DNA of 64,000 nt from Acanthochlamys bracteata. Lineage: Eukaryota > Streptophyta > Magnoliopsida > Pandanales > Velloziaceae. The stretch's first letter is position 1, and each line of letters opens with the position of its first letter. The translations under genes were made by a program, and so were the position numbers. Below, in pieces: positions 16,523 through 26,815 of the stretch. The stretch spans positions 9,114,001-9,178,000 of the forward strand of contig CM034127.1 of NCBI GenBank assembly GCA_019914995.1, read 5' to 3'. The notes under the pieces are model-generated. The model had not been told where the DNA came from and did no database searches. It was given only the letters and a program-made list of their open reading frames with translations.

Positions 16523-19500
16523 TCATACTTTGGTTTTGGGTCTTATACACCCACAGAAAACGCGCCTTTTCCTTCTTCTGTTCTCTCCTTTCTCGCTGAT
16601 ATAGTCTTTCAGAAGGGTAGCGGATCTCCTTTCCATGGCTTTCTTTTTGTGTTCTCGTTCCTCTTCAAGTTTCAATAAGATATACTGAATCTTCTGCAGC
16701 GCCAGTTCCAAACTCTCAATCTTTTCTGATCCTCTTCTTGCACGCTCTGAAAATCGCATCTTCTCCATTCTCTGAAGCTCTTCCTTTTGGCCTTCCAAAC
16801 TACCAGGAATAGCAGAATACTCCTCGGCCTTCTTTTTCATCCTGTTATTGATATCAGTTAACTGTAACACAGCCCCCTCTGTCTCTTTTAACTGTATCTT
16901 GATCAAGTTGTATTCAGCACTTAAAGGGGACTTTTCCCTTTCAGAATTCTCCATTTTCTTCTTCAGTTCTTGTAAACTTGTTTGGAGAACTGAAAGTTTC
17001 TGAGCATCAGAGTGGAGGCTCTCAGTCATCAATGACTTCCATTTGAGAGCCTCATTTAACTTGCGAAGCTCCAGTCTGTCGACTCCCAACTCTTTCTCAG
17101 CAATGAACTCTGAAGATGGGTGCTCGCTCTTATCTTCTTCAACTGCTTTAATTTCATGATAATCTGTGTCCTTGTCATTAGATGACATTGATGCCCTCTT
17201 GTTCTTGTCATTATAGTCTCTTTCAGCAGTTTCCCAAAGTTCCAGCATTTCATCTTCAGTTGCAGCTCTTTTGCTCTTACCTAGCCTGTATAAGTGGGAG
17301 CTGCTCCCATATAATGAAGAACTGGAAATTTGGTCAAGTTGAATGTCTTTCATCTTCAGTGCATGGTTCAATTTAGAGAATTCTGTATCAGTCTCAGGGC
17401 TCAAGTAGACTGCCTGGAGTTCCTCTTGGCTGACTGTATCCTCCAAGCTAGCATTTGAGTGAAGCCTTTCCTTTTCAAGGAAATTCCTACTACTTATTAA
17501 GACATGTTGAAGAGCTTCAACTTTTGCAAGCAACTTTTTCAAATATGACACGACTACAGATTCTGAAGATGTGCCAACGTCCTGAGTATGTTCTTCATGG
17601 TTTCCATCAGGAGCAGGAGGCTGGGTCGATGTGTCCTAGAAATCAATTCAAAAGATTTTAGAATTTAAATTTCAGTCTAGGTTTTAAGCAACTATATGTC
17701 GAGATAGTTTTCGATTAAGAAATACTGCAAAAAAAGTTGGAGAGGTATACCTCTTGTCCTAGCTTTGATTTGTGATGCTTTAGTAGAGAAAGAGAGTGTT
17801 TTTCAAGAGAAGCAATTGCATCCCGTAGTGATATTACAAGAAGCAAACATGTAGCTAGAGTAGTTTTTAGTTCTCTATTTTCTCCCTGTAATCCATCAAG
17901 TTTGACTGTCAAACCATTGACGTAAGAACTTTGCACACTAAGTTCTTCATGCAACGTCTGCTTTTCCAGGAAAACACATGTAAGGTGACTCTCATATTCC
18001 ATTAAGCTCTCAAGTGCCTTCTCTTTGAAAATGGCTGTGTCAACTTTGGAGATATGGACCTCTGCTAACAAACCTGCAATCTCTTTTTCACATTGCTCAG
18101 CTTCATCCATAGCGTTTCCCAGCTTGGAGGTCAGTTGTTTCTCCCTGTTTCTAAGCACTTCAAATTCTCTCTGCAATTTTGTGGACCCTGCTTCAAGGTT
18201 CCTTTTCTCATCACAAAGACATAATATTTTTTCGTCCTTGTATTCGTTGCCTTTGATTAATGAAAGGATATTGCTTTCTAAAACTTCTTTAAGAACTTTT
18301 ACTTCCTCAACTGCCAGCTGAAGATCTTCAAACTCTCTCTCGTTTTTCATCTCCGTGGACTCGATAATCAGATTTGCATCTGATAACTTCTTGTCTCTAT
18401 CCACTAATAGACTTTTTACATTTTCAAATTGAATGATGAACTCTTTAAACATACTTCTGGCTGATTTCAGTTCCTGCTCTAAATGGAGCACAGATTCCTT
18501 GAGGTGCAACTTCTCTGCAATGGAGACCTCCATTCTTTCATTTAATGTTCTAATCTTTTCTTCAAGGTGATTCTTTGTCCCTTCAAGGCAGTTCAAGTCA
18601 CCACTGAGCAATTTCACTTCCATCCCTCTGTCGCTGCTAAGACTTCTAAAATACATATAGAGGAATTCCATGGTGAAAGCCTCAAGAAGGACAGCCATGT
18701 TCTCTTCATTTACGGCATTCGTTTGCTCCAGTAATTTGCCCAGTTCCTTCAACAGAAATTTATTCTCTTCCATCAGTTTACTCTTTTCACTCAATCCTGT
18801 GTTGTGGGCATGCTTCAGAGAATTAACTGCCTCGCTTAGCTGCAATTTTTCTACTACTAGTGCTCCCATTTTCTCACTCAATATTGTCAAGTCCTCATTA
18901 AGGCCACTCTTTTGTACAACGAGGCAGTCCATGCTGTCTTTAAATGACATCAATTCCAATGCTCTTTCAGAGCTAAGACTCTTGAAGTATGAAGAGAGGC
19001 AATCAAGTGCCACATACTCCGTAAGGATAGTGCTGCACTCCTCTTCCACTTTGTCTTTCTTCCCCTCTAAGTCATGATATCTTTCTGACAATAATTGAAC
19101 TTCTGCAATCAACTGCAAAATCTTATCTTGTAAGGTCTTCTCAACCTCTTCCACCTTTTTAGTTACTTCCAGAAGCTCCAAGTCCTTCTGCATCAATACA
19201 TGATTTCCTGTTTGAATCTGTAGGCTTAATTGCTGACACTGACTTTGTGCTGCGCTGAGATCAAGCCCCAGATTGTATACTTGACATTTGTACCCTTCCA
19301 GAGCAGAGATGGATCCTTTTAGTTGTTTGTTTTCACACTGTAATTCTGCAACTTTTTCATTTAAGATTCCAATCTCCTGGCAAAGTTCATCATTCTTACC
19401 ACACAAGTTTTGCGTAGTGTTAGTAAGTAACATTAACTGAGATGCTCTTTCATCACAAAGGCCACTGAAAATCAAATTTTGGCAATCCAAGGTCAAGGCT

Positions 19501-22500
19501 TCTTCAAGTATAATGCTATTCTGCATTTCAGTCTCACCCATTTCCTCCAGCACTTCATACACTTTCTTGGACAAGGCTTGGTCCTCTTCCTTGATCTTGC
19601 AAACTTCTATCTGGAGTGCATCATGAGCTCCTTGCAAAGTTGACAGTTGCTCATGGAGGATTTCCATTTGAACCTTCAGTGTGGCTTCTCTTTCATTACT
19701 GGCCTGTAAATCTTCTCGGAGCTCGAGCCACTTATATTGTAACTGTGAGAGTTCCTTGCTTTTGACTAGATGCTCCATCTCAAAATCATTTCTTTGCGCT
19801 CTCAAGTCAAAATTGTCCTGTGCAAACTGCTGAAGGATGGTAAAACTAATCAATTTGTCAAGATAGAGTTGTTGGTTTTCTGTATGAGCATATGAAGATG
19901 AAACTAACAGCTTAGTAACTTCATCCCTCACAAGCTGCAACAGTAGCAAGCCCTTTATTCCGTTAGCTGACTCCTGTTCCGTGCTTATGTTGAGTGCCTT
20001 CAGCCATGAAGAAATGCCTTCCATGAGTTTCTCATTATGCTCTGTCAACAAAGCCGCCATTTTCTTTTGTGCACAACTTTCCTTGTTTAATTCCCAAATT
20101 AAGTTCTCAGCAGAACTTGAAGCATCTAAATGCTTGTGACATTCACTAGAAAGACTTACGTTCATCTCAGTCATATCAAGCATGCATTCCCGAAAGATAA
20201 AGGCCTCATTCTGGGTATAGAAAAGCAGTTTTTGTTCCATATCCAATTTTTGCTCCCGTACAAGAAGTTCTCCCATCAAGAGTTTCAACTTGCAACCTAG
20301 AGTGGCTAGCTCAAATTTGGTTGACTCAGCAATACTTTCATGCTTATCTTTCTCCACTCTCAGGTGATCCACTAACTCCGTAAGTTTATGAACTTTTAGT
20401 ATTTCTATGCATTCTAGATTGATACATTTTTCTGCTAGCTTTGAGAACTCATTCTCCATTTCTGCTAAATTATCGCAAAGCTTTTGTACCTGAGACAGAC
20501 GGAGATATAGGTCAAGGTTGTACACAAATACAAAGGAAACTGTCAAGGTAAAAGAAATTCATGAATAGTGTACTGGAAATTCCAGACAACATGCATCCTA
20601 GAGACCTGATAGAGTAATGACTCGGACCATTTACCTGAGAGATCAGGGCATCTTTTCGTGTTGAAAGAAGAAGCCTCTCTTCAGAAAGCAACTGATATGA
20701 TTCTTCTAATCTTTCTGCTTTCAACCTCATAGATGTCAGTTCAGTTCTAGAATCACTCAGGTACAACTCTAAAGCAGCATTCTCCTTTGAAACTTTGCCG
20801 ATACGCTCCTCGGCCTCATTTGCCTGAAATATCAGAGAGCTATGTAAAATCTTCAAACACATAAATATTCGAGTTATGGGTGTGTTTCAGCGGCTGAGCA
20901 TATCCTAAAAGCATCTTGATCTATGTGCAATGTATAAGTTCTACACATGCATAGATTGGGCGAAAGAAGGGAGGTGGGACAGACCCGAGAGGTAAGTGCA
21001 TTCTTTTCTGCAAAAACATTAGAATATTCATTTGAGAGAGTCTGGCAACAATCTTCCAAGTGCCTCAACTTTACTCTCAGATCTTCAAGTTCCACAGTGG
21101 CATTCAATAGGGATTTCTCCAAGAAGGCATTTTCCGCTGAAAGCTTCTCCATACTGTGAGCAGCAGATTCTACCTGTAGAAAACAAGAGAATGTTCATAA
21201 TTTACGTATATCAGTATATATACTATTATTGTGAGTGTGTGAGGGAGTAGTACTAAAAATTGTGCCTATAGAATTTATCATTATTAACTTATGCAGATAC
21301 CTTATATTCGACAAGTAGATGTACTCTTTGCTCATCAAAAGACGAACTTTGGATTACAGTAATAATAATGTTCAATTTTTTGTGCATATATATCACATTT
21401 ATCTGAGTGGCATGCACTGAACAAGTAATCAAGCTTCTCATTTTTTTCCAGTAAAATGCAGGTTGTGGATGTGCACATGAGAAGAAAAGATATTTAAGCA
21501 GGTACCTTAGAAGAAAGTGTATTATTTTCTGCAGTTAGATTGAACTTATCATTGGAGAGGTTTCGGCAGGAATCTTCGATGCTTCTCAGCTTTTCTCTTA
21601 GACCTTCAGCTTCAGCTGTTGCATCATGCAGGGATTTCTCTAAGAAACTATTTTTCTCTAATATTCTCTCCACATTTTGGGTGGTTGTCTCCACCTGAAT
21701 CACAGCACAAATTTCCATGATAAGCATTTGTTTGGGCATACTAGAACAAAAGCTAAACTTTCGAGCTTATTATATGTTATGTTTAGGAAATGGTTTTGTT
21801 ATTGAAAGACCTCAGAAGCAAGAACTTTCTTTTCTGCAACTAGATCAGATTTTTCATCAGAGAGCCTCTGGCACAGATCTTCGAGGCCTCTCAACTTTTG
21901 TGTCAGATTCTCAAGTTTAGCAGATGAGTCATAGAAGGACTTCTCTAAAGAAGCATTCCTCTCTGAGAGCTTCTCCGCATTCTGTGCAGCAGTCTCTAAC
22001 TGCAAAACAGCAACAACCTTTCAGGACAGATAGAATTAATTGTGTACATATAGGCTAATAGTTTTATCACTCATGGCTTATCAAACCATAAAGTTCAACT
22101 TTCAAATTTTCAAGAGTGATTGGAGGGATTCTCTAAATAAACCTGAGACACAAGTTTAGCTTTCTCAACAAGAAGATTTGCGTTCTCGTCACAAAGAAAA
22201 TGGAAGCAGCCTTCTAGATTTGTCAACTTTCTGCTATGAACTTCAAGTTCCCTACTACCATCCATCTGGGATTGTTGTGTCATATTAACACTAGTCTTCA
22301 GAAGCTTCTCAATATTTGTTGTAGTAGTCTCAATCTGAAAAGTAATAAAAACTGTTCTCAAATAAAAGAATACAGGAAGGCTTAAAGAATTAGAGATTTC
22401 TCTCTATATAGAATATCTTTTCAGCAAATCACACACTGGCAGCCTACTCTTTGATTTCGTTACTTCAGAATCTTGACATTCGACTTACTTAGGTATGTTG

Positions 22501-25500
22501 ATTTGGGTAAAGTTATGTACCTCAACCAATTCTCAATTAATTAATTTCTTACAGCATAATATGCAGCTATAATGTTAACATGACACATCAGCTTCCATGT
22601 GAGTGTGTATAGGTGTTCTATGTTGCAGTTAACATGGAGTCCTTATAATTTATACTTGGCAGTGTATATGTTAGGAAGAAATTGCAAGAAATTTTGAAGC
22701 TGCAGATCTTGAAATCTGTGAATAGTTTGTGTCAAAATTCTGAAGTAAAACAACCAAGTGCAACAACCCAAAAAGTATAGATATTAACAATATTCTCAAG
22801 ACAGCAATGCATTTCTGTTGGACATTACATATGGAGATTATAAATAATAACCTGAAGAGCAAGATTCTTATTTTCAGCGAGAAGACTGGATTTTTCGTCA
22901 TGAAGAGAATGACATAGTTTCTCCAAATCTTTGAACCTTACTTCCTGAGCTTTGACTTCTGCTTCCTTGTCGCTGAGGGAAGTTTCTAACAATATCCTGT
23001 TCTCTGCAAGTTTCATTGCCTCCAAAGTGCGACTTTTCACCTATAGGTAAATATGTCTAGTCACGTAGCTCCAGAGCAAGTCAAGTATTGTTTGAAAAAA
23101 AGAATTTATAGTAGCACACATTTACCTGAGACAAAAGTTCATTCCTCTCACAAAGAAGCTGGGATCTTTCATCATCAAGAACCTGATATGACTCTTGCAA
23201 AGTTCTCAATTTTGCTTCCAATGCATCATTTTCTGTATTTACTTTTGACAGGGAATCTGCAAGGGACATATTTGACTCAGAAAGCTTCTTCATGTCCTCG
23301 CCGCTAGTTTGTAACTGACCGATTAGCACTTCTTTTTCAGAAATTTGGACAGAGAGTTGTCCATTTAGGGAATCACAGGATTGTTGTAGCGCTGATAACT
23401 TCTTTCTTAATTCATCAAGCTCCACACTCGCATCTGATACAGAATTTTCCAGAACTGCATTCTTCTCATACAATTTTTCAGCATCTCTCATCTTTTCAAG
23501 ATATAGCAGCTTTTCTTCTTCTTGCTTCTGGCAAGCAACTTTGAGATTCGCATTCTCGCCCAGCAGTTCCTTTATCAACTTCTGCATAGCCTCAAAGTTG
23601 AAGTTGATCGACTGTGTTTTCTCTTGAATGTCTTTATGTTTCTGCTCAAGGTCTTCTCGAACACTTTTTTCATGCAAAAGTTCTGTCTGAAAATTCTTCT
23701 TCTCCTCAACATGAAAAGTCACTTCCTTTTCAAGTTTCTCTTCTTTTTCTTTCAAGAGGCTTATTTCATTTTCAAAGTTCCCCATCTTTTGGGAAGAAAA
23801 GAGTGCCTGTTCTTTTAAGTTACAGTTTTCTTCTTTGAGCTTGTGCATCTCTTCAGCCAAAGACATATTACTCAATTCAATGGAATTCAATTTTTGAATT
23901 GCTTTTTGGATACTTTCACTTAGATTTTGGACCTTCTCATGAGATTCAGCGTGCATATCTTCCAGGGTCTTGAGGGACACTACTAGTCTATCCAACTCCC
24001 CTTGTTTCTGGTCAAATTTGTGCTGTTGTATTTTGGTTTTCTGATCCAAACTTCTCAAGTTTGACTTCAGACATTGGTTTTCACTCTTCAAGACAACGCA
24101 TTTTTCTTCAGCATCCTTTAGATTTATGACTTCTTTTGCCATCTCATTGTTGAGGCTCTTGAGGTCCTCTTGAGTTTGAGAAAACTTAGTTTCTAGGTTT
24201 GAAATTCTTTCTAGTGATTCATGATATCGAACAAGAGCTTCTTCCTTCTCCAGCTTTAGTTGTGATATAGTTTCTTTGAGAGTCCCTATTTCAATTGCAG
24301 CTTTGTCTGCATGCTCAGCTTCCGATGTTATTTGGCACTTGAGGTTTTGGATCTCCGTCGACAAGCGAGAAACTTCTTCTTGAAGATCAGATTCTTGGTG
24401 GTTGGAACTGTTTTTGTGCTCAAGAAGTTCTCCTTCTTCCTCATGAAAGTTCAGTCCTTTCCTCGCCTTCCATTCACCAAACTTTGTACGAGCTTGCTCT
24501 TCTCCATTTGAAAACATTTCATTCAATTGCTTCAATCCTTTCTTCCTTTGATTTCCATCTGAAAATGTTCCATTCTTTTTTATATCATGATAAGTAGATG
24601 ATCCCAAGGTTTCCTTTTGCAAATCATCACTTTCAGAGAAAGAACGAAAAGGCATTTCAGGTGTATGAGGCTCCACATCAGAACAAGAAGAAGAAGCAGT
24701 AGGAGAATCATCTGGCAACATAAGTGGAATTTGGTTCGGGAAAGCCTCTGCCATTGTCCTATGTGCCTGACGAAGTGCCCCTGTTGCATGGTCATATCTC
24801 TCAGCTAGGGCTCTGTATGTTCGGTAAAACTCTTCCATTAATGCCATAAGCTCTGGGCGTTTCTTATAATACATCTCCGCTCTCTTTGCAAATGAATCAG
24901 CATCTTCTTCTAACAGCTTAATCATTGCATTGATCTTTTCATCCATATCTGCTCAAAGTAGGACAAAGTTTTGTCAAAATGACTCCAGATAATTAAGTCT
25001 AGGAGAACGGTCCATAGCATGCAGCTTGGAGAAAAAAAAATCATTTAAGCAACCTTTTGCAGAATTTCCATGACAACTCACAAGCTGCACACATTCAAAA
25101 ACCCATAATTTGTGATGATAATGAGGAATACGAAAAGGCAGAGTTGTTAGGAAAGAGAGAGAAGGCATCACGAGCTACATACAATTAGCTCAAAGTTAAA
25201 ATTGCTCTAATTTACATTTGATTCATGTATTTGCAGTCACCAAAAATGCAAGTCCACCTGATTACAGGGCTCTAGGGAAAAGTTCTTCCCCGATCAATTG
25301 AAGGTTTGGGAGGACAACAAGGACTTGTAAAAGTCTACCTCTATTCATGTAACGTAAGATGACAATAATTTCTGACCCAACCCGCGAACCCTATCCGAAA
25401 TCAATCCGAAAAGTAGGATTCCTGTCAGATATAAACCCTAAACCTGAAAAAATCGATCCAAACCTGATCCAAAAACTTAAATAGGTTCAGATCACATTCG

Positions 25501-26815
25501 GATTGCCTCGAAATTGACCCGTTTAATCCGTATAATTATTTATATAATATATATTATTTAATAATTAGATAATATTTAGAATAATAATATATAATTTAAA
25601 TTTAATTTATATATATATATCTTTCTAAACTTATCGTAATTTAGTTAATTTTTACTTAATTTATAAATTTATCAAAATTAATATTTTTTTCACTTTAGAT
25701 ATATTATAATTAATAATTTTTATATATTATTTATTATAAATTTTTATAATTTTTATTCTCATAATTTAAATAATTAAATAGGTTGAATTAAGATTGATAA
25801 TTTTGACTTATATAAATAAATTGATCGGATTAGAATTGAACGATTTTTATCCGGTTATTATATGTGTCGACCTGAAACCTACTCATGAATCCAAATTCTC
25901 ACCCCTAACTTCCACGTAGATACGGACTCTCAAGCTTAGAACTTAAGATAAACTGATTGAGGATAAAGAAATCCCACTCCAATAACTGCATTAGTCTAGG
26001 ACAATCTGCAGACAAGAACATGTCTTATCTATTACGTAAACACATACAAAGCATACAGAGGAAAGGATACTTCTGTTTTACTATGAGAGCTACATATATT
26101 TAAAAGGTAAAATATATAGCCAATTTGTTGTTCTAGCAAAACTTCTTCATGGAAAGGAAGTTTCTTGATGACATGACTGAAGTACAGGCCTTAAATGGAA
26201 ATAACAAGCAAACAGAGGTTCTCAATGACCAAGTTAAGCAACCATGGTCCATATCTGCTAACATCAAATGCTTTGTGTAAAGCCACCAGCTTCAAAAAAT
26301 GTTCTCCATGAAGTATGACTGAACAAAATTATGCTTTCGACTCCCTAGATACATTTTTCTTAATACAATAGTGCGGACTGCTTCAGATTGACTCAGTAAG
26401 TTAACAAAAATATTAGGATGGAAGCAGGCAGTTAAAAGATATAGCAAGTAACTCCTGATAAAGTACGAAGTAAGTGGATGAAAAAGAACCCAATTCTTTC
26501 ATGAATAATACAAAATCTTTATATTCCTACAGGGAAATCATTTCCACAGAAGCAAACGTTGGAGTACATGATAAGTATGATAGGCACTACATCTCTACTA
26601 CAATCTGCAACTAATGATAATCTTGAAAGACTGATAAAGGAGTGCTCATCTTCAAATAGGTGGTTCTATCTCAAAACGACTGGAAATAAACTTGAAAGGA
26701 CAAAATACATGCCTGTAAGATTTTCCAGAAGCCATTTTGAGTTCTTGGGGCTAATGTGGCTATCCCACCACCAAGAATACATGCGCTTTGATTCACTATG
26801 CATCAGCGTCGCCAT
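16523..26815 (-). CDS. NET1A: NETWORKED 1A-like actin-binding protein (NAB domain plus giant coiled coil)
   Basis: Plant-specific NET1 protein; family members bind F-actin through the N-terminal NAB domain and link it to the plasma membrane and plasmodesmata. Ten coding exons join in frame: 26815-26713, 24948-23126, 23040-22852, 22334-22143, 21999-21811, 21694-21506, 21173-20985, 20823-20635, 20489-17751, 17635-16523 (about 2304 residues; Arabidopsis NET1A is about 1730). Exon 1 encodes [20 protein letters not shown] and the rest of the NAB start. Exon 2 continues with [20 protein letters not shown], ending the domain near PNQIP (about residue 105). The remainder is coiled coil. Exons 3-8 are six copies of a 63-64 residue unit. 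The first long part of exon 9 holds about three looser repeats containing [10 protein letters not shown]-like segments. The basic C-terminus reads [17 protein letters not shown], as in NET1 relatives. Intron 1 has a GC donor. Confidence 0.93.
20635..23314 (-). repeat. Tandem array of 189-bp symmetric exons (63-residue coiled-coil unit)
   Basis: Exons 3, 5, 6, 7 and 8 of NET1A are each exactly 189 bp, and exon 4 is 192 bp; all are phase 0 at both ends. The last 189 bp of exon 2 (23314-23126) code for one further unit. The encoded units align end to end: an N-terminal EKLSE.N.FLEKSL.DA core, a central LR.KLR.LED.C..LS core, and a C-terminal EKS.L.AEK..L.S ending. Exons 5-7 are the most alike; exon 4 is the most diverged. 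The separating introns differ in length (85, 517, 143, 116, 332, 161, 145 bp). Confidence 0.9.
25351..25905. mobile_element. Degenerate non-autonomous DNA element in NET1A intron 1
   Basis: The left end is GATGACAATAATTTCTGACC; the reverse complement of the right end is GGGGTGAGAATTTGGATTC, an imperfect terminal inverted repeat. TAA lies on both outer sides (a possible 3-bp duplication). The interior is very AT-rich, with TCCGA/GATC-rich arms. No coding sequence was seen. Confidence 0.5.

What the first reader, a model, noticed from the sequence alone, without database searches (positions are those of the whole stretch)
20635..23314. NET1A coiled coil enlarged by serial duplication of a 189-bp symmetric exon
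Six adjacent exons are 189, 192, 189, 189, 189 and 189 bp, all phase 0, and the last 189 bp of the preceding exon encode a seventh unit. Each encodes 63-64 residues, exactly nine heptads for the 63-residue copies, and the products align end to end. From memory, Arabidopsis NET1A has only two or three such units inside one large exon, and this protein is about 575 residues longer. This is a clean case of growth by whole-exon duplication that keeps heptad register, so it could lengthen an actin-membrane linker stepwise. Exons 5-7 are the most similar, suggesting the newest copies.
Basis: partly seen in the sequence, partly recalled or inferred. Interest (0 to 1): 0.75.

Follow-up and report, generated by a model that had tools for sequence, protein, structure and literature searches.

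The report
Plant actin linker lengthened by exon copying
A plant gene for a rod-like protein of a family that links actin to membranes has grown by repeated copying of one 63-residue exon, so its rod carries eight matching pieces where two related genes in the same plant carry two; this is a clear example of a known evolutionary process, not a new kind of system.

Summary
A ten-exon NET1-type gene (minus strand, 26815-16523, 2304 aa) contains six adjacent phase-0 exons of 189, 192, 189, 189, 189 and 189 nt, each encoding one 63-64-residue coiled-coil unit. The preceding exon ends with two more units, not one, so there are eight. In leave-one-out profiles 8 of 8 units outscore all 1575 control windows from the same protein. 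The plant's own genome decides between duplication and intron gain. Two paralogues (C4, C6) have only two units, in one exon, then one intron at the same codon boundary. A sister copy on C1, in a collinear segment, shared the array but has decayed. The six exons group with the second unit, the one next to the shared intron, apart from the first. So 'unit plus intron' was most likely duplicated in series, before the C1/C2 duplication. Heptad register runs through 505 residues with one skip; six exons would add roughly 55 nm of rod. Splicing and function are untested. Coil growth by heptad-multiple exons is known (chicken BG genes): a new member of a known kind.

The parts
26713..26815 (-). Exon 1: first part of the NAB/KIP1 actin-binding domain (start codon to LENLT), with a GC donor
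   Evidence: KIP1 PF07765 over the joined start of exons 1-2, E 2.1e-37
23126..24948 (-). Exon 2 (exon A): rest of the NAB domain, coil, and units u1 and u2 at its end
23315..23503 (-).
   Evidence: leave-one-out profile 46.0 bits, 0 of 1575 controls as high
23126..23314 (-). Unit u2 (63 aa), the type with which the six exons group
   Evidence: 50.8 bits; u2-type units plus E1-E6 separated from the u1 units with 92% (protein) and 98% (DNA) support
22852..23040 (-). Unit exon E1 (exon 3, 189 nt)
   Evidence: 37.2 bits; counterpart in C1
22143..22334 (-). Unit exon E2 (exon 4, 192 nt, 64 aa, one skip residue)
   Evidence: 32.1 bits; decayed relic in C1
21811..21999 (-). Unit exon E3 (exon 5, 189 nt)
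   Evidence: 72.8 bits; C1 counterpart
21506..21694 (-). Unit exon E4 (exon 6, 189 nt)
   Evidence: 62.0 bits; 5' part present in C1
20985..21173 (-). Unit exon E5 (exon 7, 189 nt)
   Evidence: 74.9 bits; no own counterpart in C1, its best match there is C1 E3
20635..20823 (-). Unit exon E6 (exon 8, 189 nt)
   Evidence: 31.1 bits; only its last 32 nt matched in C1
17751..20489 (-). Exon 9 (exon B): long coil after the array; its start continues the heptad register but is not a unit
16523..17635 (-). Exon 10: C-terminal part with the stop codon

Best explanation
The gene is a NET1-type actin-membrane linker. Its ancestor had two 63-residue (nine-heptad) coiled-coil units at the end of one large exon, followed by a phase-0 intron exactly at the unit boundary. 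The segment 'second unit plus intron' was then duplicated in tandem several times, giving six extra exons. Each is a multiple of three bases and starts at heptad position a, so each copy added nine heptads without breaking the frame; only one copy carries a register-shifting extra residue. The growth came before the chromosome-segment duplication that made C1 and C2 and, most likely, after the split from the other NET1 lineage of this plant. The C1 copy later decayed and the window copy stayed open. Shown: unit homology, exon structure, structure of the paralogues, presence of the array before the C1/C2 duplication. Inferred: growth after the lineage split, inclusion of all six exons in the mRNA, a dimeric rod about 55 nm longer than with two units, and a longer reach between the actin-binding head and the tail.
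For: Exons, phases and frame. Unit homology against 1575 control windows from the same protein. Paralogues C4 and C6 with two units and one intron at the same place. Trees: u1 units apart, E1-E6 with the u2 type. C1 copy with E1, E3, part of E4, an E2 relic and an E6 tail; five matching introns align between C1 and C2. Collinear matches along 48.5 kb of the window and about 72 kb of C1. Heptad register continuous over the array. The u1+u2 stretch is predicted as one helix, mean pLDDT 96.9. Unit hits in 4 of the 11 strong NAB loci, the four NET1 loci.
Against: No RNA evidence. Introns within the array share no sequence with each other, so their copy origin rests on position and on the exons. 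The order of duplications among E1, E2 and E6 is unresolved (bootstrap 13-59%), and the DNA tree puts the C4/C6 u2 units among the E exons, with 32-51% support, which would fit an array older than the lineage split. Against the C1 copy, E1 shows substitutions spread evenly over codon positions (13, 9, 11) and dN/dS 0.78, and E2 12, 9, 14, so strong constraint on these two exons is not shown (C1 is decayed, which inflates this). Donors of E2-E5 match the consensus at only 5-6 of 9 places. Polarity rests on two paralogues of one genome and on one published tomato gene.
Confidence: 0.8

Rival explanations
1. Intron gain: an old uninterrupted exon with eight units was later cut by introns at the unit boundaries.
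For: The introns share no sequence, so no direct trace of duplication is left in them. A tomato NET1-like gene has no such introns at all (three exons, PMC7307856).
Against: C4 and C6 have only two units and already have the boundary intron. Independent insertions at the same codon of successive units are improbable. The array introns do not resemble each other as a burst of one inserted element would.
Confidence: 0.04
2. Loss: the common ancestor of all NET1 genes of this plant had the long array, and the C4/C6 lineage lost the six exons.
For: Most unit distances are near saturation (dS above 1 or undefined in 23 of the 25 pairs outside E3-E5), so the array is old. The DNA tree nests the C4/C6 u2 units among the E exons, with low support (32-51%), and C4 u2 is a little closer to E3 (44%) than to the window's own u2 (38%).
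Against: No unit relic in the C4 or C6 introns, which are only 124 and 200 nt. The protein tree puts the C4/C6 u2 units outside the E exons (48%, also weak). Tomato SD1 is reported with three exons and 1860 residues (PMC7307856, passages read).
Confidence: 0.12
3. A splice ladder (not exclusive of the best explanation): because every unit exon is phase 0/0 and several have weak donors, the gene makes in-frame isoforms with two to eight units, a tunable rod.
For: All six exons are multiples of three. Donors of E2-E5 match 5-6 of 9 consensus places. E2 has the weakest heptad core, 10 of 18 a/d places.
Against: No RNA data; the donor of exon B also matches only 5 of 9, and weak donors are not rare in plant genes (recalled).
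Confidence: 0.2
4. Tolerated growth (not exclusive of the best explanation): the coil is a spacer whose length matters little, and the copies persisted without benefit.
For: The sister copy C1 decayed although it had the array. E1 shows little sign of constraint against C1 (dN/dS 0.78). C4/C6 also differ from the window gene in exon B length, 579-585 against 913 residues.
Against: The window copy has kept all six exons open and in register since before the C1/C2 duplication.
Confidence: 0.4

Closest known systems
Chicken BG genes (butyrophilin-like), coiled-coil cytoplasmic tail
   Same: A presumed coiled coil encoded by many small exons of 21 (sometimes 24) nt, that is one heptad (sometimes eight residues), with exon number differing among genes (13 to 36); the tail of a related protein regulates actin-myosin interaction (PMC4046983, passages read).
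   Different: Animal membrane receptors; the unit is one heptad against nine here; far more copies, across a gene family. The 21/24 nt alternation resembles 189/192 here only by analogy.
NET1 subfamily of NETWORKED actin-binding proteins (NET1A-D)
   Same: NAB/KIP1 domain at the N terminus with the R-x-Y-S before WWW stated for NET1, long coil behind it (PMC4046492, passages read).
   Different: Ten exons and eight units; the C4 and C6 genes of the same plant have two units; tomato SD1, most similar to NET1A/B, is reported with three exons (PMC7307856, passages read).
SMC protein arms
   Same: Coil length differs among proteins in discrete steps (PMC5344682, passages read).
   Different: There the steps are about 100 residues and near the superhelical period; here 63, tied to an exon. 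No relation by descent is claimed.
Tropomyosin
   Same: Continuous actin-related coil of seven roughly equal repeats (mentioned in PMC5344682).
   Different: About 280 residues in seven repeats; nothing here shows that the NET1 units bind actin.

Membership tests
NETWORKED (NET) superfamily | N-terminal NAB (KIP1-like) actin-binding domain | tested here: met
   PF07765 E 2.1e-37, 127.5 bits against a cut-off of 33.9, over all 74 profile positions
NETWORKED (NET) superfamily | Binding to F-actin and localisation at a membrane | not testable with these tools
   Needs experiment
NET1 subfamily | R-x-Y-S directly before the WWW motif (as stated in PMC4046492) | tested here: met
   [12 protein letters not shown] in exon 1
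NET1 subfamily | Assignment to NET1A/B or NET1C/D | not tested
   No plant reference sequence was available in these tools
Tandem exon duplication | Adjacent exons of the same phase and near-equal length encoding homologous sequence | tested here: met
Tandem exon duplication | Relatives with fewer copies and otherwise matching structure | tested here: met
   Paralogues C4 and C6: two units, the same boundary intron, then exon B; orthologues in other species not available
Tandem exon duplication | Sequence similarity between the introns of the copies | tested here: not met
   No similarity among array introns beyond 11-base matches; expected if the copies are old, so not decisive
Tandem exon duplication | Copied exons included in the mRNA | not testable with these tools
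   No RNA data
Continuous coiled coil | Heptad register kept across the junctions | tested here: met
   LIVMF fraction 0.46 at a and 0.74 at d, 0.03-0.18 elsewhere; phase constant from u1 into exon B except one +1 shift at E2

The most novel reading that the evidence does not exclude
The array is a splice-tunable molecular ruler: a plant-specific actin-membrane linker whose rod length is set in steps of about 9 nm by how many of six interchangeable, frame-neutral exons are included, so that tissues or cell contacts can select the reach of the linker.
Probability: 0.12. Interest if true: 0.78.

Novelty: new member of a known kind. Interest (0 to 1): 0.42.

Why it matters
It gives a traceable example of how a coil that is often treated as a fixed-length spacer can be lengthened: the two-unit state, the boundary intron, the expanded array and a decayed copy all survive in one genome. 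The six frame-neutral exons form a natural length series, so whether NET1 rod length matters for actin-membrane spacing could be tested by removing whole exons. As a process, exon duplication is well known, so the value is as a clean case.

Tried and rejected
Intron gain and loss in the paralogues were considered and disfavoured (see rivals). Assembly artefact was rejected: the window's units are at most 52% identical to each other, and remains of the same array lie on a second contig, C1.

Hidden further units in introns or in other NAB genes: none found. A unit profile over six-frame fragments of 10-kb stretches around ten NAB loci and of the whole window found units only in the four NET1 loci. 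Three weaker KIP1 matches over the cut-off (C2:4785200, C1:4584884, C14:6193790) were not given to that scan. The whole-genome search with two joined units listed 16 matches; the 9 with E below 0.001 all lie in the four NET1 loci, and three weak ones elsewhere (C10 E 0.35, C14 E 6.3, C17 E 7.9) were not followed. Exon B start as a ninth unit: rejected.

Recent duplication visible in introns: not seen. Array introns show nothing beyond 11-base matches. Repeat searches on the DNA found no family at this period, as expected for copies this diverged.

Homogenisation of copies: not seen where testable; C1 E1, E3 and part of E4 pair with their own window counterparts at 85-100% support. Pfam on u1+u2 gave 16 coiled-coil-like families at E up to 0.01, one just over its cut-off (DUF7603, 27.4 against 27 bits); I take these as coil composition. 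Exon B and exon 10 gave none.

Literature: seven searches on NET1A/NETWORKED/exon, tandem exon duplication with coiled coil, NET1A/plasmodesmata/NAB, exon duplication in plants, NET1D, coil length, and symmetrical exons with coiled coil. Judged by titles and abstract starts of the listed papers (20 of 29, 3 of 3, 5 of 5, 10 of 10, 20 of 22, 10 of 436 and 1 of 1), none describes this expansion; only open-licence PMC papers are held and supplements could not be opened. PMC4350178 and PMC5082667 have no hit for exon or duplication.
Full report
What is there. The window is C2:9114001-9178000 of an unnamed plant genome of 195.5 Mb in 557 contigs. On the minus strand lies a gene that I model with ten exons, 26815 to 16523; it reads through as 2304 residues with one terminal stop. 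Its N terminus is a NAB/KIP1 actin-binding domain (PF07765, E 2.1e-37) with the sequence RMYSWWW, which fits the R-x-Y-S before WWW stated for NET1 (PMC4046492, passages read).

How many units. There are eight: the last 378 nt of exon 2 encode two units, u1 (23315-23503) and u2 (23126-23314). To separate homology from shared coiled-coil composition, each unit was scored with a profile built from the other seven and compared with the 1575 overlapping 63-residue windows of the same protein that lie outside the array (residue 101 onward). Scores were 31.1 to 74.9 bits; 0 of 1575 windows reached any of the eight, and the highest control score was 11.2 (1538-1574 of the 1575 received a score). The first 63 residues of exon B score 4.6 bits and 376 of 1575 windows (its own included) do as well, so exon B does not start with a unit. 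By simple pairwise scores 25 of 28 unit pairs beat every control window seen from both partners; the exceptions are u1-E2 (64 of 1575 windows as high, seen from u1), E1-E6 (31, seen from E1) and E6-E2 (3, seen from E6), each of which beats all windows when seen from the other partner.

Paralogues. A search of the own genome with the KIP1 family gave 21 matches, 14 over the cut-off, of which 11 have E of 1.7e-20 or lower. A unit profile run on 10-kb stretches around ten of these 11 loci and on the whole window, which holds the eleventh, finds units in four: the window gene (8), C4 (2), C6 (2), and C1 with u1, u2, E1, E3, the 5' part of E4 and the 3' part of an E2 relic. In C4 and C6 the two units sit together at the end of a 462-residue exon part, then comes an intron of 124 or 200 nt at phase 0 directly after u2, then exon B. 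So the boundary intron is shared by both NET1 lineages of this plant, and the six extra exons are found only in the C1/C2 lineage. A tomato gene most similar to NET1A/B, SD1, is reported with three exons, two introns and 1860 residues (PMC7307856, passages read). That excludes separate unit exons there, and its length speaks against a long array, but its units were not examined here; it also means that the boundary intron itself was either gained in this plant's line or lost in tomato's.

The sister copy. Protein-level matches between C1 and C2 run in the same order along 48.5 kb of the window and about 72 kb of C1. The C1 gene has E1, E3 and part of E4 at the expected places, and the introns A-E1, E1-E2, E2-E3, E3-E4 and E6-B align with those of the window gene. 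It is decayed: a one-base frameshift in exon A (besides two small indels that together keep frame) and one in the last exon, an acceptor AG displaced at E1, a frameshift with stops in E2, and E4 joined to the last part of E6 with a length that does not keep frame. The array therefore predates the duplication of the segment.

Descent and age. The u1 units of all four genes are split from all other units with 92% (protein) and 98% (DNA) support, and E1-E6 fall on the side of the u2 type, the unit next to the shared intron. E3, E4 and E5 form a group (87% DNA, 57% protein), with synonymous distances 0.74 to 1.06. Of the other 25 window pairs two are below 1 (u2-E1 0.84, u2-E5 0.93) and 23 are above 1 or saturated. 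The window and C1 copies differ by 0.41 over exon B and 0.18-0.56 over smaller pieces, C4 and C6 by 0.31-0.37, and the two NET1 lineages by 2.73 over exon B, near saturation. The likely order is lineage split, exon duplications, segment duplication. The first step of that order is the less certain one: the protein tree puts the C4/C6 u2 units outside the six exons (48%), the DNA tree among them (32-51%), neither with weight. Branching among E1, E2 and E6 is not resolved.

Constraint. Between the window and C1, dN/dS is 0.34 over exon B, 0.37 for E3 and 0.31 for part of E4, but 0.59 for u2 and 0.78 for E1, and substitutions in E1 (13, 9, 11 by codon position) and E2 (12, 9, 14) show little third-position excess. 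Decay of C1 inflates these figures. They do not show strong constraint on E1 and E2.

Structure. With position 1 of each unit as heptad position a, LIVMF fill 46% of a and 74% of d places against 3-18% elsewhere. Register is constant from u1 onward, shifts by one at E2 because of its 64th residue, and then stays constant into exon B. The u1+u2 stretch is predicted from its single sequence as one helix, residues 2-125 of 126, mean pLDDT 96.9; this says little beyond helix, and the spliced array was not folded. An asparagine stands at the third a place in 6 of the 8 window units, a feature known from parallel dimers (recalled). At about 1 nm per heptad (PMC5082667, passages read) the six exons would add roughly 55 nm to the rod; this is a calculation, not a measurement.

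How it likely works. NET1 proteins bind actin by the NAB domain and NET1A is found at plasmodesmata; how they attach to the membrane has not been identified (PMC12127668, passages read). The simplest reading is that the coil separates the actin-binding head from the tail, and that each copied exon lengthened it by nine heptads. Whether the added length serves a purpose or was only tolerated cannot be decided here. All six exons are frame-neutral and the donors of E2-E5 match only 5-6 of 9 consensus places (exon B's donor too has 5), so isoforms of different length are possible; RNA is needed.

Place among known things. Exon duplication is well known, and a coil built from heptad-multiple exons is known from chicken BG genes, with 21- or 24-nt exons in numbers from 13 to 36 (PMC4046983, passages read). 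The literature searches made here listed nothing on such an expansion in NET genes, within an open-licence library and judged by listings. I file it as a new member of a known kind, with moderate interest.

Noticed in passing
24949-26712: The first intron of the gene has a GC donor (CAG|GCATGT), where the C4 and C6 paralogues read GT.
   Followed up: partly
L015 (C1 paralogue), whole gene: The sister copy is a decayed gene whose array also shrank: E4 is joined to the tail of E6 and E5 has no counterpart.
   Followed up: yes
22143-22334: Unit exon E2 carries one extra residue and a glycine, has the weakest heptad core (10 of 18 a/d places), and is the unit with stops in the sister copy; it may be the least constrained unit.
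   Followed up: partly
243-48768: The window matches C1:9531531-9603499 in the same order, the sign of a large segmental or whole-genome duplication.
   Followed up: partly
23120-23128 and 20629-20637: The donors of exon A and E6, the two outer borders of the array, are the same CAG|GTAAAT (8 of 9 consensus places), while those of E1-E5 differ (5-7 of 9).
   Followed up: no
17751-20489: Exon B is 913 residues here against 579-585 in C4 and C6, so the coil after the array also differs in length for reasons other than unit exons.
   Followed up: no
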